From Dioscorea cayenensis subsp. rotundata (taxonomy: Eukaryota > Streptophyta > Magnoliopsida > Dioscoreales > Dioscoreaceae), in assembly GCF_009730915.1 (NCBI RefSeq), contig NC_052475.1, positions 29,759,016-29,823,015 on the forward strand: DNA of 64,000 bases, given 5' to 3'. Below, piece by piece: positions 5,446 to 44,479 of the stretch. A program made the translations under genes and the position numbers. The first letter of the stretch is position 1. Each line of letters starts with the position of its first letter. Below the pieces are notes generated by a model that saw only the letters and a program-made list of their open reading frames with translations, did no database searches and was not told the origin of the DNA.

Positions 5446-8400
5446 ATGAACCGTCCCGTGGGATCTAGTATGCACATGATGCCTCAGGGGGCGCCCACTG
5501 TCCACGGCGGCCTTGGCGGTGGCGACGGTGAGATACAGTACTTGGAGGAGCAGAATCAAGGCGTTCAACAAAACAATGGTGATGAAGGGCTGGAAGGTGC
5601 TATCAGGTTAGATTTTTGAGAAAAAAAACTCGTCTTTTGATATGTTATTGTGTTTATTACCATCGTCAATGATTGAAAAAAAATAATAATAATGTCTTGC
5701 ATTTGGAACCAGTTGCTCATGCATAGTGGAAAAAAAGATGTTGTTGTTGTTGTTGTGCCTTCTTTTTCGTTGTAATTGCTGTTAATTCTGCCTTCTTGGT
5801 TCTAATTGGAACATGGGATTAATAAGTGGATCAGACCCAATTGTTTGCTTAAATTTGACAAATTGGTAGAATTATTTTGAGGAATAATGAATTCTGCATT
5901 AGTGATAATTCCTTTGTGAACATGCTGGTAAGGATTAAATATAATCATCTTAAATCCTGCATCTTAGATATCTATGGTCTTGTTACTACAGTTGATTAAA
6001 GCAATGGTATCAGTTGATTAATTGAATACTCATATCGATGTGTCTGGTTGTGCACCAAATTAATAGGCAAATGTTTGAGGACCATTCAATATTATCTGAT
6101 TGGAAGAATCTGCTAATATTTGTCATATTAAAAGAAAAAAAAAAGAATGTTAAGCAGAATTTTTGTAACTGTGCATGCTCAATGAGTTGGCTTCACTAAA
6201 ATGCAGAGTTCAGAAGCATTCTGTTCTACACAAGAGCATAACAAAGTGAGACACAGTAACACTGATTTACTTATAATGCCTTTTTAATTAAGCAATAAGT
6301 TATTGCAAGTTCACAACTTTTTACTAAATAATCATTGTTCATCTTTAAAATTGCTTGTTAACTTTCTGTTCAACTCCCTCAGATGCCTTCGCTGTGGCAT
6401 CAGTGCCAAATCAACTCCACATATGCGCCGTGGCCCTGAAGGACCCAGGACTTTATGCAATGCGTGTGGAATTGCATGGACGAAGGTGAATACTCAAATT
6501 CCATTGCCTTTTGCTTATGGGATTATTATATTTACTAATTCTCATCTTTGCTTCTATCTTTTGTAACGGGCATTTATTTTTGTCTCCTACCATAATCACT
6601 CCTAAATTAATGCGTCCCTGTTCTTATAATGCTTAAGAGTGCTTCCAGTGCTGTATCATGAACGTGAAAATCTTTTTAAATCTTCTTCACTACCATAGGT
6701 AACTCTTTTCTTTGCGAGAACAAATAGGTGGTGGGTGGAAGTGGAAGGACTCCAGTATACTGAAAAGAGTAGTTGGTGTTTAATTGTGATGGAGGATGTT
6801 AGGAGAAAGTGAAATTTTACTGTCCGAAATACATGTAGATAGGATTTCAAGGACTAATTTTTTCCTTTTAAGTTTTAGTTTTTTTCAATTTTTAATTTGA
6901 TGGAGAACCTGATGTAGAACAAATGGTGATGTTGAAAAATTAACGCAGAGTGTTAATGTTTGTTCTTTAACTAAAATTTAACCACTCTCTTGAAGATTCT
7001 TCTGAAGAATTTAAAGAGCAATGTGTAGAGTGGTCAATAGAAAATAAGCCAAAAACTCATAACATAAATAACAGAGAATAAGGGTCAAATTACTTTTTTC
7101 ATGAATAAGACTGACCCTTGCAATGATAATATTTGGTCCTTTGTTTATACTCTAAGAGAGATCCTAAATATAGCAAAAGGTCGGAACATAGAGAACATTG
7201 ATTGCAACGCAGTTTGATTGAGATTTTTGTATCATGCATAAAAATATTCTAAAATTACAACAAGCTCAGTTGGTGATTTAAAAAGATCTTGAGTTGTAAT
7301 TGTAAATATGACTATCATAAAATAGTAATATTTTTTTAATAGTGATTAAGAAAGATCAAAAAAATCCTTTTGCAGTGACCTTTTTCCTCATTGACTAAGT
7401 TCTAATGAATTTAAGATGATCATGCCTCTCCAAAAAAGATTCAATTGTATCTTCAACATTGATAGTTTCATCTAATTGGATATTGATATTGTTTTTAAGG
7501 TTTACATATATTCAACTCAATGGTTGTGGAGGGTACATGAAATGATATTGTTTTAAAGTTTCCATATATTGATCTGTTTTTAAAGTTTATCCTATGTCAA
7601 AGAAGTGAAATGAAAGGCATATGAATGTGGTATTGATGTTAATATTCCTCAGCAATATATATTTTATTATGAAGGTGGAGTTTCTCCTGACAGAACTTCT
7701 AGGCATGCTCTTCTTGTTTACAATGACTCTATGGTTGTTGTTGTTGTTCTTGGTGTTTAGTACTGTAGTTCATAATGTGGATGCTGGTTTGAGTTTTATT
7801 ATCTTGGATTGCTTATAGGTGTTGGGCAGTTTTGTGCAATTTAAAAATGGTTTAAATTTCGACAAGTCTTAATGATTGCCACTTATTGTTTGACATGATA
7901 TACTGTTGATGTTTTCTTGAAGTTTTGTAGCCTTATTGTGGTTACTTTCTGCGAACTATCAATATGGCTTTATCTAGATCATTGTAGTTCTCTTTGTAAC
8001 TCACCTGATGGTTTTCTAAAACTGTTGAATCATTAGAGTCTGAATAAACAGGGAAAATTGAGAAAAGTAATTGACTTTGATGCTCCTAGTGATGATGCAA
8101 CAAGTGAGAAAATGGTGCCAGAAGTTAACATGGAGTTTGAAAGCGAAGATAAGGCATATGAATTCTACAATAAGTACGCTGGCCATATTGGCTTTAGTGT
8201 GAGGAAAAGTTCAGCAGACAAATCTTCTGAGAATGTTATCAGATCAAGAACATTTGTGTGCTCAAGAGAAGGGTTCCGCAAGGACAAAAAGGGAGCTAAA
8301 GAAGTGAAGAGACCCAAGCCAGAAACCAGAATTGGTTGCCCTGCACGGTTGACCATCAAGCTAGTGCCAAATGGTAAATATCGTGTGTCTGAATTTGTAC

Positions 8401-10262
8401 CAGAACATAATCATCAACCAGCACCTCCTTCAACAACGCATTTGTTGAGATCGCATAGAATAACTACCGAGGTTCAGGCTGCTGAAGCAGACTTGTCTGA
8501 TGATTCTGGAACAACCCCAAGGTCTACAAATGAGCCTGCAGCTAGGCAGGTTGGAGGTTTTCGAAATGTTACTTTTCTTCCGGCGGAGTATAAAAATCAT
8601 CTAAGGTCAAAGCGGATGAAGGCCATGCAAATAGGAGATGCTGGGGGAGTGTTGAAATACTTGCAGAGCATGCAGCTTAATAATCCATCATTCTTTTATG
8701 CCATACAGGTAGACGAGGATGATAAATTGACCAATGTTTTTTGGGCAGATGCGAAGTCTATGAAAGACTTCAGCTACTTTGGTGATGTTGTCTGTTTTGA
8801 CACAACCTATAAAACAAATGGATATGGAAGACCTTTTGCACCATTCATTGGTGTCAATCACCATAAACAAACTGTTATATTTGGTGCAGCACTGATATAT
8901 GATGAAACTATTGAATCTTTCAAGTGGCTTCTTGAAACTTTCAAGATTGCAATGCAAGGAAAGCAGCCAAAAACAATTCTAACAGATCAATCTATGGCAA
9001 TAACCAGCGCAATTTCTATGGCTTGGCCTGGCACAATCCAACGTCTGTGTTTGTGGCATGTCTACCAGAACGCTTCAAAGCATCTTAATCATGTCTTCCA
9101 AGGTTCAAAAACTTTTTCAAAGGATTTTGCAAGATGTATTTATGATTATGAAGATGAGGAGGAGTTCCTTACGGCCTGGAGGATGATTTTGGAGAAGTAT
9201 GATCTTAGGAACAATGAATGGTTGGGCAAGCTTTTTGAGGACAGGGACAAATGGGCTTTGCCATACAGGCGAGAAATATTTTGTGCGGACATAAAAAGCA
9301 CATTACAAAATGAAAGCCTGAGTAATGTGTTGAAGAAGTATTTGAGCCCACAGCTAGATTTGCTGTCCTTTTTCAAACATTATGAAAGGGTAGTAGATGA
9401 GCATCGTTATGCAGAACTACAGGCTGATTTTCAAGCAAGTCAAAGTTTCCCAAGAATACCTCCATCGAAGATGCTGAGGCAAGCTGCTAATCTATATACA
9501 CCTGTTGTCTTTGAAATTTTTCGGAAAGAATTTGAGATGTTCATGGATTGCATGTTATATAGTTGTGGCGAGGTTGAGACAACATCTGAGTATAAAGTGA
9601 TTGTCACAGAAAAACCCAAAGAGCACTTTGTGTCATTTGACCCATCTGATTGCTCAGTCATTTGCACCTGCAAAAAGTTCGACTTTATGGGGATTCAGTG
9701 CTGCCACGTATTAAAAGTGTTGGATTTTAGAAATATTAAAGAGCTTCCACTGAGATACTTCTTGAAGAGGTGGTGCAAGGATGCGAAAACCGGGCCTGAG
9801 AAAGATGATAAAGGGATTACTGTTGATGGTGGTCCAAAGTCTCCTACGACAACACCCGTGATGCACGCACCGTTACCTTCACAACCTCATCTTGGTTTTC
9901 ATCCAATGGCAGAATATAGTCAGGTACGTGCCTGACCTGAACAAATGCAAGAATTGACCGATCTTTTCTTGAACTTAATGTGGATAAGTTTCTGATGCAC
10001 TGCAGGAATGTCCTGTTTCTGATCTGCATCACCAGACGGTCCATGGTGCAACTCAGCTAAGTCAGGTAGGTAACTGGACAATTTATCCAATATATATTAC
10101 ATGTTACAGGCTATTTCTTTGTTAACATTGAGACTAAGAAAAAAACCATGCACGTTTTTCACTTTTCAGGGATTCTCTAATACCGACATGCATTCGCAAC
10201 CATTTTTTGGGAGTTCCCACCTGAGCCAGAGGACAACAGAACGAGATCGTCGAGGCATTTAA
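5446..10262 (+). CDS. GATA zinc finger fused to FAR1-related (FRS) protein
   Basis: Five exons splice in frame with GT-AG borders: 5446-5606, 6383-6485, 8052-9923, 10006-10065 and 10170-10262, giving 762 residues. Residues 1-53 are Gly/Gln-rich. Residues 55-82 form a C-x2-C-x20-C-x2-C GATA finger of the x20 type. About 123-209 is the FAR1 DNA-binding domain, ending in EHNH. About 335-440 is the MULE-transposase-like domain with FDTTY (Asp338) and TDQ (Asp400). About 614-652 is the SWIM finger (CTC...CCH). Such proteins descend from domesticated transposases and act as nuclear transcription factors in light signalling and development. The ATG at 5446 is chosen because a shorter upstream frame (5425) stops at once and GCAG just before it could be the acceptor of a leader intron. 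No lesion was seen. The exact FRS subgroup and the transposase activity (probably lost) are not established. Confidence 0.88.
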
Positions 10263-17262: not shown

Positions 17263-17457
17263 ATGGTGTAGAATAAATTCGCATTCCATCATGAGTGAGA
17301 GTTGTATATTACAGAGAATAATGTGATATCTACTATAATAGAAAATGATGTAGAATAAACTCGCATTCTGCTCTATATGGAATAGATGCATGATGTAGAT
17401 TCACTATCGAGACAATCATTGATACGACATGTTAGGCGGAACCGGAAACAAATTAAA
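17263..17457 (+). repeat. 195-bp dispersed repeat, copy 1 (left of virus cluster)
   Basis: Nearly identical to 32975-33170. Within each copy a 25-bp motif with GTAGAATAAA(T/C)TCGCATTC occurs twice, about 85 bp apart. Homology between the copies stops at AAACAAATTAAA; here viral Rep sequence follows at once. Confidence 0.9.
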
Positions 17458-17465
17458 AGGCAAAA

Positions 17466-18275
17466 ACGCCAGTACTACCGAGAGTTTTCAGGATTAATGC
17501 TAAGAATATCTTTCTTACTTACTCTAAATGCTCATTATCAAAGGAATACACAATAGAGAAGCTGAGAGCACTTTCCCTCTCAAGCAACAAGAAATTCATC
17601 CGGGTAGCAAGGGAATTACATGAAGACGGTACACCGCATTTACATGTTTTGATACAGTTTGAAGGTAGGATACAGGTAACAAATCAGAGATTGTTTGATA
17701 TTGTGTCTCCACATTCATCTGCTATATTTCATCCCAATATACAATCTGCTAAGTCTAGCAAAGACGTCAAGGCATACATTGAAAAAGGTGGTGATTTTCT
17801 AGACTGGGGCACGTTCCAGGAAGATCCAAGGAATTCCAGAAATAGAGGGCGAGCATTGGATGATGTTTATGATGATGCGTTGAAGTCCACATCAACAGAA
17901 GAGGCATTACAGATAATAAGAATAAATGATCCCAGAATATTCACACTGCAATATCACAATCTGAGAGCGAATTATGAAAGATTATTTTACAAGCCTCTTG
18001 ATCCTTACATATCTTTCTCGGGAATATTCTTCTTTAATATAACTAGGATTATGAATGAATGGTCGAGCATAATTTTCAGATTAATTGAGTATGCAGCAGT
18101 TGAAAAATATAATTATTCAAAGAGAAGATTAGACAGGGCCCATAAGTTCGATCGTCTGAAGGCCCAAGTCGTATTGGTAAACCCGCTGGGCCAGTCACTT
18201 GGTAAGCACAATTATATATGTGGGTCATCCGGATTTCAACCAAAGAACGTATCACGTGATGTGTCAGATATATAA
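17466..18275 (+). pseudogene. Rep: Truncated geminivirus Rep (single-deletion copy)
   Basis: Encodes the N-terminal two thirds of the replication initiator: rolling-circle motif I (FLTY), motif II (HLHV, followed by LIQF here) and motif III with the presumed nicking Tyr (KAYIEKGGD), then the oligomerisation region. The usual start codon reads ACG (17466-17468). Frame breaks precede the Walker A region (near 18165-18200). Sequence then jumps from just before Walker B to the virion-sense promoter, so the helicase end is missing. A 208-codon frame (17649-18275) stays open, but it lacks motif I and motif II is incomplete. Confidence 0.88.
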
Positions 18276-18296
18276 GGGTAAATCGATGTAGCTATG

Positions 18297-18890
18297 TAAC
18301 GGTATATTCCATGGTCAAAAGGTTACCAGTAAAGTTGGTGTAGTTAAACACATACAGTACATATGCCAGCCGTTCTACGCTTTTTGCCTCTCGGTCAGAT
18401 ATAATGTAATCTAATGATTATATATTCCATAGTGACTCCACTTTTTTGATTCATCGTCGACTTCTGGAAGAATTCAAGATGATTATTTAGACTTTTAAAT
18501 TTGAACTATCGGGAGATGTTTCGCTAATCCTTTACTAAACAAACCGTGATTCCCCGACACGCGAGCGCATCTGAGGGCCATCCGCGATCGCGGATGGCCC
18601 CTCCGCATCACGCCAGCGTCGAATCCGATCGTTTGTTCGAATTAAAGCGTTGCCAGAATCTTCCCGAAAGAAAGTTCAAATTTAAAATTTAAATAATCAT
18701 CTCAATTCTTCTCAAGAATTCGGATCGATGAATTCAAAAAGTGGGTCCCACTATGGAAATATATAATCATTAAATTACTCATATATGTACAACCAGGAGG
18801 CAAAAACTGAGAACTAACAGATGTACTTATTAAGTGTTTACTAACCCCGACACCATATGCTTTTTAGCTGCTCACCTTGACCATGGAATA
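18297..18890. repeat. Inverted duplication of viral intergenic region around origin stem
   Basis: The sequence reads similarly from both ends toward about 18592. Left and right arms share, in opposite orientation, the GGTATATTCCATGGTCA block, the GTGGGACC/CACTAT region, AAATTTAAAATTT-type runs and the origin stem. At the centre GGCCATCCGC is followed by GATC and GCGGATGGCC; the nonanucleotide loop is missing. The two arms are the same side of the origin joined head to head. Confidence 0.85.
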
Positions 18891-18896
18891 TACCCG

Positions 18897-18905
18897 CTAT
18901 AAATA
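18897..18905 (+). promoter_or_regulatory. TATA box of viral virion-sense transcript
   Basis: CTATAAATA lies about 55 bp before the ATG of the 103-codon frame at 18960. It sits on the opposite side of the origin from Rep, as expected for the virion-sense promoter. Function in the present genome is unknown. Confidence 0.5.
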
Positions 18906-18959
18906 CATCAATTTACCTCTATATAATACGATTCATTCCCTAATATCTTGTTGTGGAAG

Positions 18960-19271
18960 ATGGAAAAACAAAGATATCATGTTAGTAAATTATCTCGCTT
19001 ATGGAATACGGTCTCGCGGAGATCATCAAATGTCTCACGGCATATGTATAGCACAAGCAATCGAAGCATCCCTCGCCCACTCATCAAGTTTGTCGACGCC
19101 TCCGTAAACACGAAGAGTCTGCCTTCCGTATGCTACGTAGCCCTCGAGTGCATCCAAAGTGATGATGAAGATCTTTCTTATCGCGCTCCGCTTATTCAAC
19201 CTGATGCAAATTACAAAAATATAACCTCAGATGCTCCAGAAGTTTTGGTGCCTTCTGATCCATCTGTTTAG
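18960..19271 (+). CDS. Virion-sense viral ORF of unknown function
   Basis: A 103-residue frame begins at MEKQRYHVSK, follows a TATA box, and occupies the position of the virion-sense genes. Its first half is basic (many Arg/Lys) and its second half acidic (SDDEDLS). I do not recognise it as a coat, movement or silencing protein. It may be truncated or specific to this virus lineage. The same 5' end, in reverse orientation and with changes, lies beside the Rep fragment in the 0.82-kb units (near 21415-21440, 22240-22270 and 23045-23075), so it belongs to the ancestral genome. Confidence 0.5.
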   Translation: MEKQRYHVSKLSRLWNTVSRRSSNVSRHMYSTSNRSIPRPLIKFVDASVNTKSLPSVCYVALECIQSDDEDLSYRAPLIQPDANYKNITSDAPEVLVPSDPSV

Positions 19272-19439
19272 CAAGTATTCTGATTATTAGTAGTTTGATG
19301 TAATATCAGTGTGCAATTAGTATTCTGCAATAATTGCTATTTTAAATGAAATCCTATATGTTATCACTAAATTAAGAAAAATCAGTATCAAACTGATGAA
19401 AATTATTAAACAAGCATATCATTCATTAGTCTAAATAGA

Positions 19440-19690
19440 ATCGGACATGGGCCGAATTCTCACATCAATGATATGCCTTCAACCGCCCACGAAATGTGTA
19501 ATGTACTCGACATGTACATTAATAGAAATAACCCCGAAACTATCGAGGAAATTCATTACATTACATCTAAATACATGTAGAAAAATTCTCAAGACGTGGG
19601 ACGTAGTGTTGTCCATATACGAAAAATACAACCAAAGATTTATTTATACGTAGAGCCCTGCGAAGATTGTAGTTGAATCTTATCTCCATT
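19440..19690 (-). pseudogene. Degenerate replication enhancer (REn/C3)-like segment
   Basis: On the minus strand FNYNLRRAL (about 19650-19677) and GVISIN (about 19518-19535) match conserved positions of geminivirus REn, but they lie in different frames with stops between them. The location, just past the Rep 3' end on the same strand, is where C3 sits in begomovirus-like genomes. TrAP/C2 would overlap here; I could not recognise it. Confidence 0.5.
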
Positions 19691-20970
19691 GTGATCCTGT
19701 CCCAGTTGTTGTTGCATGGTCTCATTCGATGATCTTTTGACCCGAAATAGAGAGGATTACGTAGTTGCCATGAGAATACCCGAAAGATTTACTCGCTCCT
19801 CCGTAAGTAGTTCTCCATCCTACTCGTCCCATTTCGCATCGAGCATCCGCATGGAACGGCTAGTAATGCTCGTCTTTGGGCTTGTGCCGATCGGGAACAA
19901 AGGGTTATCTAAGAATTCAAACTTGGCATTCTTTAATGTCCAATCACGCAGCACTGTATTTTCAAGTTTTATCCAAGTATTCTTTGTAACTTGAATCAAT
20001 ACCTGGGTTACACAGTATAATAGACGGTATACCTCCTTTTATACGAATTGGTTTACCGTATTTGCAATTGGTCTGCCAGTCTCTTTGACAACCAATAAGC
20101 TCTTTCCAGTGCTTCAGGCGTAGATACGCCGGAGATACATCATCAATGACATTATACGACACATCCTCGTTGATACGTCTGTCGGATTGAAATCCGGATG
20201 ATCACTATATAATTGTGCTTACCAGTGACCTGGCCCAAGCAGCTTTACTATCACGACTTGGGCCTTCAACCATCGACTTATGGGCCTAATACAATCTTCT
20301 CTTTTGAATAATTATATTTTCAAACTCGGCTGCACAGACGACAATTAATCTGAAAATTATGCTCCAGCCATTCATTCATAATCCTAGTTATATTAAAAGA
20401 AGAATATTCCCAGAAAGATATGTAAGGATCAAGAGGCTTGTAAAATAATCTTTCATAATTCGCTCTCAGATTGTGATATTGCAAGCGTGAATATTCCGGG
20501 ATCATTTATTCTTATTATCTCGTAATGCCTCTTCTCGACTGTGGACTTCAACGCATCATCATAAACATCATCCAATGCTCGCCTCTATTTCTCGGAATTC
20601 CTGGATCTTCCCGGAACGCGTGCCCCGCCTAGAAAAATCACCACCTTTTTCAATGTATGCCTTGACGTCTTTGCTAGACTTAGCAGATTGTATATTGGGA
20701 TGAAATATAGCAGATGAATGTGGAGACACAATATCAAACAATCTCTGATTTGTTACCTGTATCCTACCCTTCAAACCCAGTATCAAAACATGTAAATGCG
20801 ATGTACTGTCTTCATGTAATTCCCTGCTACCCGGATGAATTTCTTGTTGCTTGAGAGGAAAGTGCTCTCAGCTTCTATTGTGTATTCTTCGATAATGAGC
20901 ATTTAGAGTAAGTAAGAAAGATATTCTTAGCATTAATCCCCGAAAAACTCTCCTATGGCATCTTGGGCAT
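19690..20970 (-). pseudogene. Rep: Near full-length geminivirus Rep, frameshifted
   Basis: The only copy carrying both halves of Rep. The start ATG is at 20968-20970, followed by an in-frame stop within about five codons. Endonuclease-domain segments lie at 20568-20960, the middle region at 20320-20505, and the helicase end at 19962-20162 with Walker B (NVIDDV) and motif C (CNPG). These occupy different frames. The C-terminal tail continues to about 19700. A functional protein is not expected from this copy. Confidence 0.9.
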
Positions 20971-21112
20971 TTTTGTAATAAATGGGATTACACCTCCGTG
21001 AATAGTTCCTGGACCGATGGCGCATAAGCAACACATACACACTTACACACTTATGAACAGAGATTGTAAGTGCTGTAACTATTCACAAGAGTGTAAACCC
21101 ATTTATTACAAG

Positions 21113-21420
21113 AATGCCACTACCACCAAGAGGTTTCAGGATTAATGCAAAGAATTTATTTCTTACTTATGCTAAATGCTCATTATCAAAGGATTACACA
21201 CTAGAATGGCTGGAGCATAATTTTTAGATTAATAATGCTGCGCAGCCGGTTTAAAATATAATTATTCAAAAGAAGATTGCATAAGGCCCATCGAGCTCTT
21301 GATTGTCGAAGGCCCAAGTCGATTGGTAAAAGCTGTCGGGGCTCGCTCACTTGGTAACCACAATTATATATGTGGCTATCCGATTTCAATCCAAATGATG
21401 TATCATAATATACACGGCCA
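21113..21420 (+). pseudogene. Rep: Rep fragment of subgenomic unit 1
   Basis: Starts with the N-terminal segment up to motif I (FLTY), then jumps to the mid-region (EWLEHNF) and runs out of frame through the Walker A region. No endonuclease motif II or III is present, so it cannot code for an initiator. Confidence 0.85.
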
Positions 21421-21813
21421 TGATATCTTGTTTATCCATCTTCTATAACAAGCTATAAGGGAATGGTCTTATTATATAGAGGTAAAAATGATGTTATTGT
21501 AATCGGGTATATTTTTTCCCGGTCAAAAGGTCAACGGAGAAGCCATGTGGCGTCGGGGTTAGTAGACGTTAACAAGTACATACGTAGTGCTCTACGGTTG
21601 CCTCCCAGTAGTACATATATATGAGACATAATAATAATTTTTATATTACATGGTGGGACCCACTATCTTGAATTCATCGTCAGAATTCTTGGAGAAGAAT
21701 TCGAGGTGATTATTTAAAATTTAAAATTTGAATTTTACTGAGAAAGATTCTTGGATGTATCTTTTAATTCAAATCAACCAATCGAGATATAGACGCATGG
21801 CGATGCGGAAGGG

Positions 21814-21846
21814 GGCCATCCGTAAAGTAATATTAATATGGATGGC
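21814..21846 (+). other. Geminivirus origin hairpin, unit 1/2 (decayed loop)
   Basis: GGCCATCC (21814-21821) pairs with GGATGGC (21840-21846) around a loop holding TAATATTAA (21828-21836). The canonical nonanucleotide ends in C at the nick side; here the last base is A. Confidence 0.85.
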
Positions 21847-21937
21847 GGATAAGCAACACATACACACTTACACACTTATGAATAGAGATTGTAGTGCCAG
21901 AACTATTCACAAGAGTGTAAACCCATTTATTACAAGA

Positions 21938-22240
21938 ATGCCACTACCACCAAGAGGTTTCAGGATTAATGCAAAGAATTTATTTCTTACTTATGCTAAA
22001 TGCTCATTATCAAAGGATTACACACTAGAATGGCTGGAGCATAATTTTTAGATTAATAATGCTGCGCAGCCGGTTTAAAATATAATTATTCAAAAAGAAG
22101 ATTGCATAAGGCCCATCAGTCTTATTGTCGAAGGCCCAAGTCGTATTGGTAAAACTGCTTGGGCCCGTTCACTTGGTAACCACAATTATATATGTGGCCA
22201 TCTGGATTTCAATCCAGCGACGTATCATAATATACGGCCA
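21938..22240 (+). pseudogene. Rep: Rep fragment of subgenomic unit 2
   Basis: Same deleted structure as the unit at 21113. The N-terminal frame stops after EWLEHNF. Farther on, and in another frame, a Walker A-like GPSRIGKT is best preserved here (about 22125-22160), but there is no Walker B. Confidence 0.85.
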
Positions 22241-22632
22241 TGATATCTTGTTTATCCATCTTCTATAACAAGCTATAAGGGAATGGTCTTATTATATAGA
22301 GGTAAAATGATGTTATTGTAACGGGTATATTTTTCCGGTCAAAAGGTCAACAGAGAAGCCATGTGGCGTCGGGGTTAGTAGACAGTTAACAAGTACATAC
22401 AGCCGTTCTACGGTTTTTTTTTTGCCTCCTGGTAGTACATATAACAGACATAATAATAATTTTATATTACATGGTGGGACCCACTATCTTGAATTCATCG
22501 TCAGAATTCTTGGAGAAGAATTCGAGGTGATTATTTAAAATTTAAAATTTGAATTTTACTGAGAAAGATTCTTGGATGTATCTTTAATTCAAATCAACCA
22601 ATCAGATATAGACACGTGGCGGTACGGAAGGG

Positions 22633-22665
22633 GGCCATCCGCAGTAATATTAATATGCGGATGGC
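22633..22665 (+). other. Geminivirus origin hairpin, unit 2/3 (best preserved)
   Basis: The stem is GGCCATCCGC (22633-22642) with GCGGATGGC (22657-22665). The 14-nt loop contains TAATATTAA (22645-22653). The stem is intact, but the final loop base differs from the canonical TAATATTAC. Confidence 0.9.
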
Positions 22666-22756
22666 AGACAAGCAACACATACACACTTACACACTTATGA
22701 ATAGAGATTGTAGTGCCAGAACTATTCACAAGAGTGTAAACCCATTTATTACAAGA

Positions 22757-23060
22757 ATGCCACTACCACCAAGAGGTTTCAGGATTAATGCAAAGAATTT
22801 ATTTCTTACTTATGCTAAATGCTCATTATCAAAGGATTATATTTAGATCGGTCGGAGCATACTTTAGATTACAATGTCACAGCACTGCTTTAAAATATAA
22901 TTAGTTCAAAAAGAAAGATTGCATGGCCCATCGCCCATTGCCGAAAGGCTCAGTCGATTGAAAAACTCGCTAGCTCGCTTTCATTGTAATCATATATATG
23001 TGGCCATCCGGATTTCAACCAAACTGACGTATCATAATATACTGCCATGATATCTTTGCT
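22757..23060 (+). pseudogene. Rep: Rep fragment of subgenomic unit 3
   Basis: Same deleted layout, but the most mutated of the three: many small indels follow the motif I segment and the Walker A region is barely readable. Confidence 0.75.
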
Positions 23061-23404
23061 TTATCCATCTTCATAACAAGCTATAAGGGAATGGTCTTGA
23101 TATAGTAGGTAAAATGATGTTATTGTATCGGTATATTTTTCCTGCAAAAGGTCACGAGAAGCTACGTGGGCGCCCGGGGTAGTAGATTAACAGAGTACAC
23201 CGTTTACATGTTGCTTCGGTAGTACATATAATGCATACATAATAATTTTATATTATCATGGTGGGACCCACTATCTTGAATTCATCGCCGGAATTCTTGG
23301 AGAAGAATTGCGGTGATTATTTAAAATTTGTACTTGAATTTTACCGAGATTCTTGATGTATCTCAATTCAAATCAACCACTCGAGATCAGGCAGAGGGCG
23401 ATGA

Positions 23405-23427
23405 GGCCATCCGCAGATCGCGGATGG
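23405..23427. other. Second head-to-head origin junction lacking the loop
   Basis: GGCCATCCGC, then AGATC, then GCGGATGGCC. As at 18583-18602, two copies of the same origin side meet at the stem and the nonanucleotide is lost. Flanks read as inverted repeats for several hundred bases on each side. Confidence 0.85.
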
Positions 23428-23771
23428 CCCCCTCCGCATCGCCACGCGTCGTAATCGACTGGTTTGTTTGAATTAAAGGTTAAGCCGAGAATCTTCCCCA
23501 GTAAAGTTCAAATTTAAAATTTAAATAATCATCTTGAATTCTTCTCCAAGAATTCAGACGATGAATTCGAAAAAGTGGGTCCCACTATGGAATATATAAT
23601 CATTAAATTACCTGTTATATGTACAAACTGTGAGGCAAAAACTCAGAGAACTAACAGTATGTACTTATTAAGTGTTTACTAACCCTGACACCATATGGCT
23701 TTTAGTCGCTCACCTTTTGACCATTGGAATATACCCGTTACAAATACATCAATTTACCTCTATATAATACA

Positions 23772-24580
23772 GCACATCCTGTTGATACGTTGCTGGATTG
23801 AAATCCAGATGACCACATATATAATTGTGCTTACTAGTGACCCTCGCCCAAGCGCTTTATCTAATCACGACTTGGGCCTTCAACGATCGTACTTATGGGC
23901 CTAATACAATCTTCTTTGAATAATTATATTTTTCAACCCGGTCACAAGAAGACAATTAATCCTGAAAAATTATGCTCCACCATTCATTCATAATCCTAGT
24001 TATATTAAAAGAAGAATATTCCCGTAGAAAGATATGTAAGGATCAAGAGGCTTTGTAAAATAATCTTTCATAATTCGCCTCTCGACTGTGATATTGCAGA
24101 GGTGAATATTCGGGATCATTTATTCTTATTATCCGTAATGCCTCTTCACCGATGTGGACTTCAACGCATCATCATAAACATCATCCAATGCTCGCCCTCT
24201 ATTTCTGGAATTCCTTGGATCTTCCTGGAACGTGCCCCAGTCTAGAAAATCACCACCTTTTTCAATGTATGCCTTGACGTCTTTGCTAGACTTAGCAGAT
24301 TGTATATTGGGATGAAATATAGCGTATGAATGTGGAGACACAATATCAAACAATCTCGATTTGTTACCCGTATCCCTACCCTTCAAAATCGTATCAAAAC
24401 ATGTAAATGCGGTGTACCGTCTTCATGTAATTCCCTTGCTACCCGGATGAATTTCTTGTTGCTTGAGAGGGAAAGTGCTCTCAGCTTCTCTATTGTGTAT
24501 TCCTTTGATAATGAGCATTTAGAGTAAGTAAGAAAGATATTCTTAGCATTAATCCTGAAAACTCTCGGTGGTACTGGCAT
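23772..24580 (-). pseudogene. Rep: Truncated geminivirus Rep (single-deletion copy)
   Basis: The start ATG at 24578-24580 is intact. Motif I and motif II (HLHVLIRF) fall in one frame (to 24383); motif III (KAYIEKGGD) lies in the next (24129-24386). The rest is frameshifted. It ends just before Walker B, at the same breakpoint as the plus-strand copy at 17466-18275, and joins the virion-sense promoter. The two copies are therefore descendants of one deleted molecule. Confidence 0.88.
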
Positions 24581-24728
24581 TTTTGTAATAAATGGGATTA
24601 CACCTCTGTGAATAGTTCTGGGACTACAATATGAAAGAGGAATATTCATTATTGTTTGCCATCTATCGATCTTTTTGTTTATGAAATCTTGCCTGCTGCT
24701 GATGATAATAGTGCTTATTCTCTGACAG

Positions 24729-25832: not shown

Positions 25833-28800
25833 TTAACTCATTTCAACCAGAATTCGCTGGTACCTGCTGCAGTCTGATGTCTCTTTGAAGCCAGGCAGAA
25901 AATCAGAGAAAAACCTCAGCACGGCAGCAAGATTTTGAGCCTCGCGGGTGGCCAAAGCTGCCTCGAGGAATAGTGATGACCGTACTGTAATAACCTGCAT
26001 ATGATATTCCGCAAAGAACAGTAGGATATATCATAAAATGCTACTAACAGAATATTCATCTTAACCACGCACAGTTTATAGAAGTGGATAACAAGATCTA
26101 TACAAGATGATGTCTACATTATATGGAATCAAGACAAACCTTGTGCTTATGAGCGTAGCGCAAAGCTTCAAGGTAGTATCCATCTTGTAATAGTGTGGTA
26201 ACATAATCATGATGCAGTGACAGCTGTCTAAGCATATCGACTCCTAGCTTATGTGTTGCTAAGTTTTGGCGGCCCGACTCTAACAGTTGCAGAGCAACTT
26301 CTTTTGAGGGCTCCAAGATCTGCATAAGAATAATGTGTGACCAAAAAGCTATGATATTAAGAGCTTGTGAAACTTCAAATTTTGATGTTCAACAAAATTA
26401 AACAACAGCACAAATCATCTAATTCAGAGGTTAGTTGGAAAATGATGAGCAACAAATAACCCAACAGTCAAAAATAAAATTTTCTACGGCTAATAAGCAG
26501 GCATGGAGTAGAACAATGAAATAGAGTACAATTAAGAAGCTTCACAATCCGATATTTATTTCACCTTGTTCACTAAGAACATCCCGATTTCAGGATAGCG
26601 ATTGTTAAAAAGCTAGAAGTTGTATGATCATAACATAAATGTTTGGATGAACTTTTGAATTTCTTTTTGAAACACTGCAAACAGTAAGAAAATATTTGAA
26701 GTGGTAAATAAGTTAATTAGAATTCATTTGAATTCTACAGTATGTAACACTAGAACAGCATACCATAAGTCAATAGATTTCAGCAGGAAAATACAAAAAC
26801 CTATCCAATAGTTAAATGGAAAGGCTTTGTAGGTTTTGCTCTTACTAACCTCAACGATTAACATGTAAAAAGATTGAGTTATTCACACTGTAAAAGCAAG
26901 ATACAGCAGCATACCTCCGCAGAAACTCTACAATAATTGCAACTAAGTATGCAGGATCTCCACCCATTTCCTCCTCAACAACTGCAAAAACAGAGTTGTG
27001 CATGTCCTCAGGTGAAATAGCTACACTTGGTGATTGAGTTCCTTGCTGACTAGAAGCAGACGTAGATGGACCATTGTTAAGTTCTTCAGACTGTAAAGGA
27101 GATTTTCCTGAAGCAGTGTTTGAGCTTTCCACCTGAATTTCTTCTCTTTCAGTGGGAAAGGACTTCTCCAGAAACCGTCCTGAATTAGTCCCCACTGTTT
27201 CTAAGTTCAAGTCGGCCACATTTTCAGAAACAGCAAGCTTTAGTGCTCCAATTGCCACAGATGTTGAAACATCAGCGTGAGTTTTGCTTGCATCTGTGCC
27301 TATAAATTGCCGGTGCTCCTCCTTCCCGCTTGATTCTTGTTCCATGTGTCTCTGCATGTTCATTTGACTACCTGGCTCCTCATAAGAACGGCTGCCAGTA
27401 CTTTTGGGACTTCTCTGGAGCCCCTTGTCCACCTGGAAGGCCATTTCCCATTTTGACTGAATGAGCATACGAACCAATGAGTACATCTATTGCCCTTGCT
27501 ACCAGAGATACAGGTCTCTTTTCAACGATTATGGTGCGCAGAATAGCCAGGCATAACTGCTTAATCTGAATGCGAGAAGATTGGCATGGTGTCAGAAGCG
27601 GAATTGGGTTCTTTCTTAATCAGGCTAGCTGAAGATCAGATTAATGTATTGCAGAGACAGGAGTTAGTTTTACCTTGGTAGGTTCAGATTTTCGCCGTTG
27701 TAAGAACTCTAGAACCAAAGGCATGTCTGAACTACTAGCAGCGATGGCCTGGCGTGAAGGACTTGCCCATTAGAATAGAACTACAGAGCATAGCATTTCT
27801 TTGTTGTCGCAAAAATAACTCACCTCTAAATCCAAATAGATCCTCCACAATAGCCCATTGTCAACATCACATATAAGATCAGGAACAAGAAAAGTCCAGC
27901 TATCTCCATATATGGTTCCTCCATAAGCACTTATTGTATTGTCCTCCTGAAGGATTTTTTGCCTCCTACTATTTGATGAACTCCTCAACAGGAGTGGAAG
28001 TGGAGCAGAAATAGGTGCTAAAGAATCCAAGAAAATGTCATAGAGTATGACAACTTTGGCATCCACTTGATGAATAAGAAGTACATTATCAACAACACTA
28101 ACTGCAATTTTGCCAGAATAAACAGGCAGAGATCCCTGAAGTGATAGATTGAAAAGACATGAGTCATTATATATGTCTTATCAAAAGTTGACAGAATAAT
28201 TTTAAAGGGCCTTTTGCATAATAAGGCCTGCTTCTGAAAATGTGTTCCATCTATATCTATCTTGCAGTTAGTAAACGCACTTTATATATGAATCAACATT
28301 TTCATAATAAGGCATATTTCTATGGTCTATGTGTGCCTAGCACTGTGTATAAAAATGCCAATATCGCAGGGTAATACAAGGGGGGGGAAAGAAGGAACAG
28401 ATTTTCTTACAGCATAAAATAATTTGGAAAAGAATACTTTGCTGTTTGAGACTAATATAAGTGAATGTTTTAGTAGGAACTTGTACCTGTTGCACAACAG
28501 CATCTCGATAGAACCTATACAGGTAGAGTAGCATGCCAACCCTATCAAGTTGCAGGCAGTATATTCTTCCATACCTGTAGATAACAAAAGAATGTATATC
28601 AGAATCTTTTGGGGAAAATGCAAACCATACTGAAAATTCTCATAATTTATGTGTAGAATTTTAACGAGGACGACATTGTCACAATATGGACATCATCTTC
28701 AGTGAGAACAGGTTTTTGATTTGTCTCAGCCTTGGTCATTGTCATCTCAAACTTTGGCAAGCGAATGATTCCTCCAGATGAAAACTGAAGATAAGGACAA

Positions 28801-32974: not shown

Positions 32975-33170
32975 ATGGTGTAGAATAAATTCGCATTCCA
33001 TCATGAGTGAGAGTTGTATATTACAGAGAATAATGTGATATCTACTATAATAGAGAAAATGATGTAGAATAAACTCGCATTCTGTTCTATATGGAATTGT
33101 ATGCATGATGTGGTATTCACTATTGAGACAATCATTGACAGCGCATGGCAGGGCACGGAAACAAATTAAA
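32975..33170 (+). repeat. 195-bp dispersed repeat, copy 2
   Basis: Nearly identical to 17263-17457, with the same internal 25-bp duplication and the same right edge (AAACAAATTAAA). Here a MITE-like element, not viral DNA, begins at that edge. Confidence 0.9.
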
Positions 33171-35169
33171 GCGATGTTGTCGGACTCGGATCAGGCCCAG
33201 TTCAATCGGAAAAACCGGAGCCGTAGTGACCGGCCGGATATCTCCCATTGACCCGGGTATTAAAAAACCGGTGTTAACCCCGATGACCGGGCGGTTCAAT
33301 CGGGAGCCGGTTGACCCGTCGAGTCAATCAGTCTAATGTTTAATTTTTACAATATTTAATAATTTATTATTATTTTCTCATTAAAAACCACAAAATCGTA
33401 TATATTTATTAATATTAATTTATAATTTATAATCAATAAATAGAATTACATTATATATATGTATATACCAACAAAAATTAACATTTAAAAATAAAATATA
33501 TTAATGTATTATGTAAATACTTTCTAAAAATTTAATTTATTAAGAAAATAAAACAATAAATAAGTGTAATTTTTATTATAAAAAAATATAAAAATTAAAA
33601 GTATTCTAATTAAATAAAAATATAAGAAAATTTAAAAACAAAAATAAAAAAACTCAATTGAGATATAAAAATTAGTGAATTAAATTTCTTATTTATTTTT
33701 AATAAAATCAACCAATAAACAAATAAATAAATAAATAACAAGCGGAAGTTCGATAATCTGTATATTAATATATTAAATTTGTAAATATTTAAAAAATGTA
33801 AAAATAAATGACAAAATTAGAAAATTCTACTGTATATAAGGTCATTTATCAATTTAAGTATCAAATTTGAGTAGGTTTTATAATATAATTATGGATTTAA
33901 TATTATATTTGCTTATTATTAATTATTATAATATTTTTTTATATTTAATTATTGACCCCGGTTCAAACCCGGTTCGACCCGGTTGAACCCATTGACCCCT
34001 GACCCCTGGGCTTAGCCGGGTCATTGCCCGGGCCGGGTCTGACAACCTTGATTAAAGGGGGTGCTTATATAAAAAATTATAAAAAATTTTTTTGAAGTTT
34101 TTTCAATTCAAAAAATATAATTAGATTAGTTGAACAACATATTTATGGTAGTTTGGCCGATCCAATTGTTACATAAAAAAACAATATATTTATAATTTTT
34201 TATACAAGACAAAATATAAAATTAAGGGGCCAAACAATAATTTTTTATAAATATTTTTTAAAGAGGATCATTCTTCTCAAGGTTGTCAGACCCGGCCCGG
34301 GCAATGACCCGGCTAAGCCCAGGGGTCAGGGACTCAGGGGTCAATGGGTTCGACCGGGTCGAACCGGGGTCAATAATTAAATATAAAAAATATAATAATA
34401 ATTAATAATAAGCAAATATAATATTAAACCCATAATTATATTATAAAAACATACTCAAATTTGATATTTAAATTGATAAATGACCTTATATACAGTAGAG
34501 TTTTCTAATTATGTCCTTTATTTTTACATTTTTTAAATATTTACAAATTTAATATATTAATATATAATTATCGAACTTCTCTCGATGTTATTTATTTATT
34601 TATTTGTTTATTGGTTGATTTTGTTAAAATAAATAAGAAATTTAATTCACTAATTCTTATATCTCAATTGAGTTTTTTTATTTTGTTTTTAAATTTTTCT
34701 TATATTTTTTTATTTAATTAGAATACTTTTAATTTTATATTTTTTTATAATAAAATTACACTCATTTATTGTTTCATTTTTCTTAATAAATTAAATTTTT
34801 TTAGAAAGTATTTACATAACACATTAATATTTTTATTTTTTTAAATGTTAATTTTTTTGTTGGTATGTTTATGATATATATATATATTGTAATTCTATTT
34901 ATTGATTATAAATTATAAATTAATATTAATAAATATACACGATTTTGTGATTTTTAATGAAAAAATAATAATAAATTATTAAATAATGTAAAAAATTAAA
35001 CATTGTGACCGATTGACTCGGCCGGTCAACCGGTTCCCGATGGAACCGCCCGGTCATCGGGTTAACACCGGGTTTTTAATACCCGGTCAATGGGGAGTAC
35101 TCAGCCGACCACATGGCGGGCTTCTGTTTTCGATTGAGCCGGCGGGTCGATCCGGGTCCCGACAACCTA
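33171..35169. mobile_element. 2-kb fold-back: two inverted GC-ended MITE-like elements
   Basis: Arms 33174-34050 and 34278-35169 are inverted copies of one element, separated by a 227-bp spacer. Each arm itself has inverted GC-rich ends beginning GGTTGTC(A/G)GAC and rich in ACCCGG/CCGGGT, around an AT-rich core. The left core (about 33340-33490) matches the right core (about 34830-34990) almost base for base in reverse complement. No transposase frame is present. Transcripts through it would fold into a very long hairpin. Confidence 0.85.
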
Positions 35170-43273: not shown

Positions 43274-44146
43274 TCAAAGATGAAGATCTAAACTTACATT
43301 ATCTTTTGAAGTGGAAGGTGGTGTAGAAGATGATGAAGAGGAAGAGGTTGAAGAAGAAGTAAGAAGAGTACTCACTGGAATTCTTGAGTAATCCCCGGAG
43401 AAGAGAGGGAGAGGAGAAGAGTGGTCCCGGTGAGTTGCACCACTGTGGGAGGTGGTAGGAGGTCTCCAGAGTGCCGGTAAAGGGTTACCGGTTATCGGTT
43501 GAGAGACGGTGCCGATACCAGAGCAAAACCTAGCTGAAACATTAGGGTTATTGTTAATGGTGGTGGTGGTGGTGGTGGAGTTGGTCCAGTGAGGGTAATG
43601 AACTGAGTGAGGTTGTTGATCAAAAGCGAAGCTGAGACGGGAGTGAGTTGGTATGAGTGAATTGAGCCGATGGTGGTAGTTCAACAGACCATAAACATGC
43701 CCATCAGTGATGCCCGGAGGGTGGTGGTGGTGGTGATGGTGAGCGGTAGCCATGGCTGATTGAAGGTGAGCTCGCTTCGCATGTTGCCGTTCTCGTTTGT
43801 GAGCGTTTTGGTGCCCGCCAAGAGCTTGAGATGTCGGGAAGTTTCGACAGCAGTAATGACACTCAAACTTCCGACCACCACCTTCGACTCCGGCGGTGGC
43901 GGCGGCGGCGGCGGTGGCGGTGGCGGCGGAAGAAGATTGGTCTTTAGTAATGATCTCAATGTCTTCAGTCGGAGAATCAGTGTCGGAGGGGAACTCAAAG
44001 CCAAATAGACGAATGCCGGAGTTAGAAGTGGTGGATTGGGACGGGGACAATGGCTTGTCACGACCGGGGACCGGGCGACCGATGAATGGGAGCTGAGAAA
44101 AAGAGTCCACACTCATGAAGTCATGTGTTTCTCTATCACTAGTCAT
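43274..44146 (-). CDS. Single C2H2 zinc-finger transcription factor with EAR-like motif (GIS/ZFP type)
   Basis: An uninterrupted 290-residue protein. Residues 44-52 (GIRLFGFEF) match the short conserved motif of the GIS/ZFP5/ZFP6/ZFP8 clade. Cys96, Cys99, His112 and His116 form one C2H2 finger with the plant-specific QALGGH helix (107-112), followed by basic AHKRERQHAKR. Histidine, Thr, Ala and Ser runs follow, and the C-terminus SLDLHL is an EAR-type repression motif. In Arabidopsis such factors act through gibberellin and cytokinin signals in trichome initiation. The start at 44146 (MTSDRETHDF) is chosen because the longer frame to 44416 begins with low-complexity sequence typical of a leader. 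No intron is needed. The exact paralogue cannot be named. Confidence 0.88.
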   Translation of the reverse strand: MTSDRETHDFMSVDSFSQLPFIGRPVPGRDKPLSPSQSTTSNSGIRLFGFEFPSDTDSPTEDIEIITKDQSSSAATATAAAAATAGVEGGGRKFECHYCCRNFPTSQALGGHQNAHKRERQHAKRAHLQSAMATAHHHHHHHPPGITDGHVYGLLNYHHRLNSLIPTHSRLSFAFDQQPHSVHYPHWTNSTTTTTTINNNPNVSARFCSGIGTVSQPITGNPLPALWRPPTTSHSGATHRDHSSPLPLFSGDYSRIPVSTLLTSSSTSSSSSSSTPPSTSKDNVSLDLHL

Positions 44147-44349
44147 CACTAACAGGAAGAAGAAAAAGAAGACACAGAAAGAAGAAGAAGAAGAGTAAGG
44201 AAAGCTAGAGAGTTCTTCTGATGTTACATAAATATATATATTTACAACTAAAAAGATTTTGAGTTGAATTGAGTCCAAATAATATATGTGTGGTTGTTTC
44301 GGTAGAAGTGGGGCACACGAGAGGGCTGTGGGGGACTGACAATAGCAGC

Positions 44350-44350
44350 A

Positions 44351-44382
<32 letters not shown>

Positions 44383-44383
44383 T
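44350..44383 (-). repeat. CAG/CTG trinucleotide repeat in zinc-finger gene leader
   Basis: About ten GCT units on the plus strand (CAG on the sense strand), 200 bp before the chosen start codon. A (CT)n/(TA)n tract at 44445-44480 lies farther upstream. Confidence 0.8.
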
Positions 44384-44445
44384 GGTGATGGAGGCTTTTG
44401 GCTTCTCAAACAACAACCAAGTACCAATCCTACTTCTCTCTCTGA

Positions 44446-44479
<34 letters not shown>

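What the first reader, a model, noticed from the sequence alone, without database searches (positions are those of the whole stretch)
21013..23410. Tandem array of 0.82-kb origin-bearing defective geminivirus units fixed in a plant chromosome
Rep start codons repeat at 21113, 21938 and 22757 (spacing 825 and 819 bp). Every unit carries the same two deletions: one inside Rep, one from the Rep Walker A region to the first codons of the virion-sense ORF. Each keeps an origin hairpin. This is the expected footprint of a minimal circular subgenomic molecule, like the defective DNAs known from geminivirus infections, replicated as a rolling-circle concatemer and then integrated. A fixed DI-like concatemer could give small RNAs or, if Rep is supplied in trans, be released. 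That last part is speculation.
Basis: partly seen in the sequence, partly recalled or inferred. Interest (0 to 1): 0.88.

Follow-up and report, generated by a model that had tools for sequence, protein, structure and literature searches.

The report
Yam chromosome fossil of geminivirus minicircles
A yam chromosome carries three head-to-tail copies of a one-third-size, origin-bearing remnant of an ancient geminivirus, inside a larger viral cluster whose joints sit at the virus's replication origin; it is a new variant of a known kind of viral fossil.

Summary
The array exists as assembled: three head-to-tail units, U1 21016-21840, U2 21841-22659, U3 22660-23406, spaced about 825 and 819, lacking the same two stretches. 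Corrections: TAATATTAC hairpins lie only at the U1/U2 and U2/U3 boundaries, and the array is part of a 7.2-kb endogenous geminivirus cluster (17458-24630) with a near genome-length inverted unit (F) and two shorter forms (A1, A3) with another deletion. The host is Dioscorea cayenensis subsp. rotundata.

The same genome holds at least four more arrays of 819-864-bp units, of two further deletion types, and genome-length arrays of about 2.49 kb. Five joints of the origin-stem type were found; two read exactly as two nick-site ends fused. This favours DI-like rolling-circle products joined at nick ends before or at integration. Tandem truncated-rep-plus-origin repeats are already known from Nicotiana GRD, genome-length tandems from yam EGV1. 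Copy differences in this window look largely like unpolished assembly error, so age and exact junction letters are unsafe. Fixation, expression and release were not tested.

The parts
17263..17457 (.). left flank: dispersed host repeat (second copy at 32975-33170), between the assembly gap and the viral cluster
   Evidence: 91% identical copies, homology ends at the viral edge
17458..18588 (+). A1: shortened geminivirus unit with only the second deletion; Rep frame open 17457-18272 but out of the Rep family match after the middle domain
   Evidence: Gemini_AL1 E=5.3e-50, AL1_M E=1.1e-9; R98-904 and R2131-2390
18576..18601 (.). A1|F head-to-head joint at the origin stem, GATC-type centre, no nonanucleotide
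18590..21014 (-). F: near genome-length unit with broken Rep and REn remnants
   Evidence: collinear with R67-2409; AL1, AL1_M and AL3 matches in pieces
21016..21840 (+). U1: 825-bp minimal unit, both deletions
21841..22659 (+). U2: 819-bp minimal unit, both deletions
22660..23406 (+). U3: third minimal unit, noisy copy, right edge at the origin stem
21827..21835 (-). nonanucleotide TAATATTAC in the U1/U2 hairpin
22644..22652 (-). nonanucleotide TAATATTAC in the U2/U3 hairpin (10-bp stem, 12-base loop)
23403..23430 (.). U3|A3 head-to-head joint at the origin stem, GATC-type centre, no nonanucleotide
23421..24630 (-). A3: shortened unit with the same second deletion as A1
   Evidence: Gemini_AL1 in two pieces; R54-915 and R2128-2478

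Best explanation
This is an endogenous geminiviral (EGV) cluster in yam (Dioscorea cayenensis subsp. rotundata). Deletion derivatives of a geminivirus-like genome of about 2.5 kb (about 1.28 kb and 0.82 kb, both origin-bearing) were multiplied by Rep-driven rolling-circle replication into head-to-tail concatemers. Linear products ending at the Rep nick were joined to each other, head-to-tail and head-to-head at the origin, and the mixed molecule was integrated. Shown by sequence: the units, their deletions, their origin-centred edges, the host flank on the right, and sister arrays elsewhere in the genome. Inferred: the episomal concatemer stage, Rep nicking as the source of the ends, end joining, and integration as one event. 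The units encode no working Rep (frames of 29-37 codons) and are most likely inert apart from possible small RNAs.
For: Array edges at the origin: U1 starts about 12 bases and U3 ends about 1 base from the nick position; two random-phase edges would both fall within 12 bases with probability about 0.0009 (analytic value). The other edges of A1, F and A3 also lie at the stem or within about 100 bases of it. The genome has four more minimal-unit arrays of two other deletion types (819-864 bp) and genome-length tandems of about 2.49 kb with origin hairpins. Head-to-head joints of the origin-stem type occur at five places; two read exactly as two TAATATT^AC ends fused; reversed-pattern control 0.
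Against: The window's own two joints do not have the exact nick-fusion letters (GATC-type centres). The C18 and C16 joints combine the same two lineages and may be one event copied. The array is 195 bases from a gap in an error-rich stretch. No reads, small-RNA or population data were available. Tandem copies could also arise after integration.
Confidence: 0.68

Rival explanations
1. Post-integration amplification: one deleted EGV copy was integrated and later multiplied in the chromosome by unequal crossing-over or slippage; the inverted units came from later rearrangements.
For: Such growth is common for plant tandem repeats (general knowledge). The C13 array is flanked by 1.73-kb direct repeats of 96.6% identity, a sign of local duplication there. 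The C18 cluster carries two similar joints.
Against: Random-phase edges would rarely fall at the nick on both sides (about 0.0009). Minimal-unit arrays with different deletions occur at several loci, and joints sit at the origin at four loci on three chromosomes (C5 twice, C16, C18 twice, of which C16 was placed from hit orientation only).
Confidence: 0.2
2. Assembly artefact: the order of units is wrong because repeated, inverted viral DNA was assembled from few noisy reads at a contig end.
For: Gap 195 bases away. About one indel per substitution between copies (0.86-1.44), clustered (0, 0 and 5 of 2000 permutations for U1-U2, A1-A3 and F-A3). The host palindrome 33176-35166 and the gap-side array L009 are similarly noisy.
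Against: The arms of the inverted joints carry different deletions, so they are not fold-backs of one strand. Cleaner arrays and exact joints of the same kind exist elsewhere in the assembly. The single-base indels are not enriched in homopolymers (7 of 18, 14 of 27, 18 of 38, against base fractions 0.46-0.48), so the error reading itself is not fully proven.
Confidence: 0.1
3. The retained Rep frame is a selected miniature protein and the repeats are a coding array.
For: 2 of 6 units of the clean C10 array L010 keep a 175-codon frame.
Against: U1, U2 and U3 stop after 37, 37 and 29 codons; 11 distinct 819-type units in L038-L040 stop after 3-6 codons, with the start assumed at the homologous place.
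Confidence: 0.02

Closest known systems
Nicotiana geminivirus-related DNA (GRD5, GRD53, GRD3)
   Same: Multiple direct repeats in plant chromosomes, each with a degenerate truncated rep and an intergenic fragment with a v-ori-like sequence (passage of PMC5014472).
   Different: Different host order; here unit lengths, lineages and orientations are mixed and head-to-head joints sit at the origin. GRD sequences were not compared (not held; PMC40128 not held).
Yam EGV1 and EGV2 (Filloux et al. 2015, PMC5014472)
   Same: Same genus, Rep and REn, no coat protein reported; EGV1 is tandem with an origin hairpin, 2,642-bp repeat.
   Different: A1 Rep frame is 55% identical to a D. persimilis Rep (P0002) and 46-47% to three other yam Reps (P0008, P0010, P0028), so it is a separate lineage; units here are 819-825 bp and about 1.28 kb as well as near genome length.
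Geminivirus defective (interfering) DNAs and minicircles
   Same: Deletion derivatives keeping the intergenic region and origin; about half genome size, also 500-1,500 nt (passages of PMC3499829); 1,241-1,572 nt minicircles in PMC6293997 (passages).
   Different: These are chromosomal; U is about one third of genome length; trans-replication and interference are unknown.
LOC120256894 locus, contig C1701 of the same genome
   Same: Same lineage as A1/A3: P0001 is 95% identical to the A1 frame over 73%; DNA 91-93% to A3.
   Different: Has a normal origin hairpin with TAATATTAC; no minimal units found on it.

Membership tests
Endogenous geminiviral element (EGV) | Geminivirus Rep homology | tested here: met
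   Gemini_AL1 E=5.3e-50 in A1; AL1_M and AL3 in F
Endogenous geminiviral element (EGV) | Joined to host chromosomal DNA | tested here: met
   Gap-free from 17263 to 58203 with a host RMC1_C gene and a zinc-finger frame to the right; left only 195 bases before a gap
Endogenous geminiviral element (EGV) | Origin hairpin with TAATATTAC | tested here: met
   Two of the boundaries, 21827 and 22644
Nicotiana GRD-type repeats | Direct repeats of truncated rep plus v-ori | tested here: met
   U1-U3; definition from a passage of PMC5014472
Nicotiana GRD-type repeats | Sequence kinship with GRD | not tested
   No GRD sequence was compared
Yam EGV1/EGV2 | Close Rep identity to published yam EGV Reps | tested here: not met
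   55% (P0002) and 46-47% (P0008, P0010, P0028); which of these is EGV1 or EGV2 was not stated in the call
Geminivirus defective interfering DNA | Origin kept, rest deleted relative to a genome-length form | tested here: met
   Unit map on a 2496-base genome-length unit
Geminivirus defective interfering DNA | About half genome length | tested here: inconclusive
   A1/A3 type about 1.28 kb by the R map fits; U (819-825) is about one third
Geminivirus defective interfering DNA | Episomal circle replicated with helper Rep, interferes | not testable with these tools
   Needs plants or circle sequencing

The most novel reading that the evidence does not exclude
Yam chromosomes preserve, more than once, the end products of Rep nicking: virion-strand ends at TAATATT^AC fused head-to-head, joined to concatemers of independently deleted minicircles that converge on about one third of genome length and spare the same roughly 120-nt piece of the Rep middle. 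That piece would be a cis-acting element needed for minicircle replication, and nick-ended linear DNA would be the form in which geminiviruses integrate. The inverted layout would also make the locus a natural long-hairpin source of small RNAs against geminiviruses.
Probability: 0.25. Interest if true: 0.72.

Novelty: new variant of a known kind. Interest (0 to 1): 0.5.

Why it matters
[quoted passage not shown] Joints at the nick site, repeated at several loci of one genome, would make that a testable mechanism. The arrays would also be a deep-time record of defective geminivirus minicircles, and their inverted layout raises the question whether they feed antiviral small RNAs in a staple crop.

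Tried and rejected
Chance repeats: rejected. Fold-back read artefact for the inverted joints: unlikely, the two arms carry different deletions. Shared second deletion between the U and A types: rejected; breakpoints differ (A-type at a TCGTAT microhomology seen by eye, U-type elsewhere). So U is not A with one more deletion. Miniature Rep protein: looked for because the Rep-internal deletion of U seemed in frame (my arithmetic); not supported (see rivals). The 12 rows of 3-6 codons there are 11 distinct units, one being seen in two overlapping loci. Captured host DNA in the 819-bp units: rejected; the about 300-base block recurs at spacings 2492, 2494 and 2637 in another C18 array, so it is taken as viral. 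Fusions of two 3' ends at the nick: no exact match; 56 hits against 47 in the reversed control, uninformative. Relatives in viral contigs: 3 pattern hits, none confirmed. Virion-sense frame 18927-19268: no Pfam family, no homologue; only 1 candidate. Shared Rep middle: three types share at least 120 bases with probability 0.012 under random placement (0.0087 for at least 150 bases with slightly different lengths). This is post hoc, and U's left edge was set by eye, since the alignment runs further left. The simulated line for array ends was miscoded (it printed 0); only its analytic value is used.

Full report
WHAT IS THERE. Self-comparison confirms three head-to-tail units spaced about 825 and 819: U1 21016-21840, U2 21841-22659, U3 22660-23406. 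They lie within a 7.2-kb cluster, 17458-24630. In order: A1 (+, 17458-18588), F (-, 18590-21014), U1-U2-U3 (+), A3 (-, 23421-24630). Pfam finds Gemini_AL1 in A1 (E=5.3e-50) and in F and A3 pieces, marginally in U2 and U3 pieces; AL1_M in A1 and F; Gemini_AL3 (REn) in F at 19570-19788. No coat-protein family was seen in the frames scanned. The genome-wide coat-protein search did not complete.

HOST. The zinc-finger frame at 43277-44464 is 94% identical to a D. alata protein over 71% of the query. The best Rep hit, P0001, is named D. cayenensis subsp. rotundata and sits on a 7,238-base contig. The window's own assembly (584,211,761 bases, 2249 contigs; window at C5:29759016-29823015) has a contig C1701 of 7,238 bases that encodes P0001 at 215 of 215 residues. 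I therefore take the window to be from D. rotundata.

DELETIONS. One genome-length unit (2496 bases, hairpin to hairpin) of the C18 array served as a ruler, R. U = R1 to about R198, the Rep middle up to R894, then R2065-2496. A1/A3 = R54-915 and R2128-2478, without the Rep-internal deletion. F = R67-2409, collinear. The second deletion of U and that of A1/A3 differ at both ends, so they are separate events. The piece kept from the Rep middle matches residues 198-266 of the yam Rep P0002.

ORIGINS AND JOINTS. TAATATTAC in a hairpin occurs at U1/U2 and U2/U3. A1|F (about 18588) and U3|A3 (about 23414) are head-to-head, virion-side arm to virion-side arm, with GATC-type centres and no nonanucleotide. 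Both stems fold better than shuffles (z -3.8, 0 of 200; z -3.4, 2 of 200); the F|U1 joint forms no stable hairpin (z 0.5). In the assembly, exact arms with a 2-9-base centre hit four places: C5 twice (these two), C16:8630460 and C18:7817374; reversed control 0. A three-mismatch search adds C18:7839998. One search confirms the inverted virion-side arms for the two C18 joints; for C16 I infer it from hit orientation. The two C18 joints read CAGT|ACTG, what two TAATATT^AC ends give when fused; C16 lacks one base of that. The nick position within the nonanucleotide is recalled knowledge. C18 and C16 combine the same two lineages, so they may descend from one event. The window's joints sit at the same place but are not exact; with the error level there I cannot tell decay from error. 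Another inverted EGV pair, L042 on C10, is centred away from the origin, so not every inverted joint is at the nick.

SISTER ARRAYS. The genome has at least 140 Gemini_AL1 matches (150 of 163 candidates scored). Genome-length tandems of about 2.49 kb lie on C18. Minimal-unit arrays: C10:7.07 Mb (hairpin spacings 849-863) and C10:9.12 Mb (843-844, with one gap of 1483), mapped units R1-368, 591-815, 2241-2496; C13:3.70 Mb and C18:7.84 Mb, mapped units 819 bases, with other-lineage sequence in place of two R stretches. I mapped two units of each array, not all. That makes three minimal types (U, C10, C13/C18) of 819-864 bases, near one third of 2496, with different breakpoints. All keep the origin and a shared piece of the Rep middle (P=0.012 under a crude random-placement model, chosen after seeing the data). 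U-type units continuous over both deletions were found only at C5 among the places listed (40 of 125 candidates scored).

ASSEMBLY QUALITY. Within-lineage differences in the window have about one indel event per substitution (0.86-1.44), mostly single bases, while U against A in the 5' part has 0.06-0.20. Other U-A stretches are in between (0.33, 0.41, 0.65), as expected if the A-side copies carry the errors. Gap openings per mismatch: window 0.51, against 0.043, 0.025, 0.012, 0.019 and 0.062 in L010, L011, L039, L040 and L053; L038 0.16; gap-side L009 0.45 and palindromic L042 0.57. Three host direct-repeat pairs in the window have 0.10-0.17, the host palindrome 0.51, the repeat touching the cluster 0.45. 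Differences are clustered, but single-base indels are not enriched in homopolymers, which a simple nanopore-error model would predict. I read most copy differences here as unpolished read error, with that reservation. The 10.5-15% divergence of U from A in the 5' part is substitution-rich and taken as real. I give no integration date.

HOW IT LIKELY WORKED. Shown: origin-edged units, deletions, joints, host flank. Inferred: deletion derivatives multiplied by rolling-circle replication; linear products cut at the nick; joining in both orientations; integration. PMC3187698 describes v-ori hairpins as recombination hot spots in most circular ssDNA viruses (passages), which fits. Present function: U frames stop after 29-37 codons, so no Rep is made from them. 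EGV1 small RNAs were reported in D. alata (passages of PMC5014472); none were tested here.

WHAT IS KNOWN. Direct repeats of truncated rep plus v-ori are known from Nicotiana GRD and genome-length tandems from yam EGV1 (passages and section 3.2 of PMC5014472). PMC7758297 (parts 1-2 of 4 of its results) counted 148 rep copies in D. alata and clusters of unexplained origin. 'Head-to', 'inverted', 'defective' and 'concatemer' do not occur in the main text of PMC7758297; 'head-to', 'inverted', 'minicircle' and 'subgenomic' do not occur in that of PMC5014472. In the listings I saw no title or abstract start describing nick-site head-to-head EGV joints or sub-kilobase EGV arrays in yam. Inversions in defective geminivirus DNA are in print (a title in the reference list of PMC3187698). 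Most subscription papers, including the 1996 GRD paper, are not held, so this is weak evidence of novelty.

Noticed in passing
window 33176-35166: A 2-kb host palindrome (85% arms) directly follows the second copy (32975-33170) of the repeat that flanks the viral cluster on the left.
   Followed up: no
window 8037-9932: 632-codon open frame with FAR1 and MULE transposase domains.
   Followed up: no
window 26854-27486 (-): RMC1_C-type gene about 2.2 kb to the right of the viral cluster; exon limits not worked out.
   Followed up: partly
L038 353-2085 and 5885-7626: The C13 819-bp array is flanked by 1.73-kb direct repeats, 96.6% identical, without TG..CA ends in the stretches printed.
   Followed up: partly
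L042 2181-6566: 4.4-kb EGV palindrome on C10, 97% arms, centre away from the origin; indel-rich.
   Followed up: partly
C18:7817373-7844844 (L053, L011, L039, L040): About 27-kb EGV cluster: genome-length arrays of two lineages and an 819-bp array, with exact nick-site head-to-head joints at 7817373 and 7839998.
   Followed up: partly
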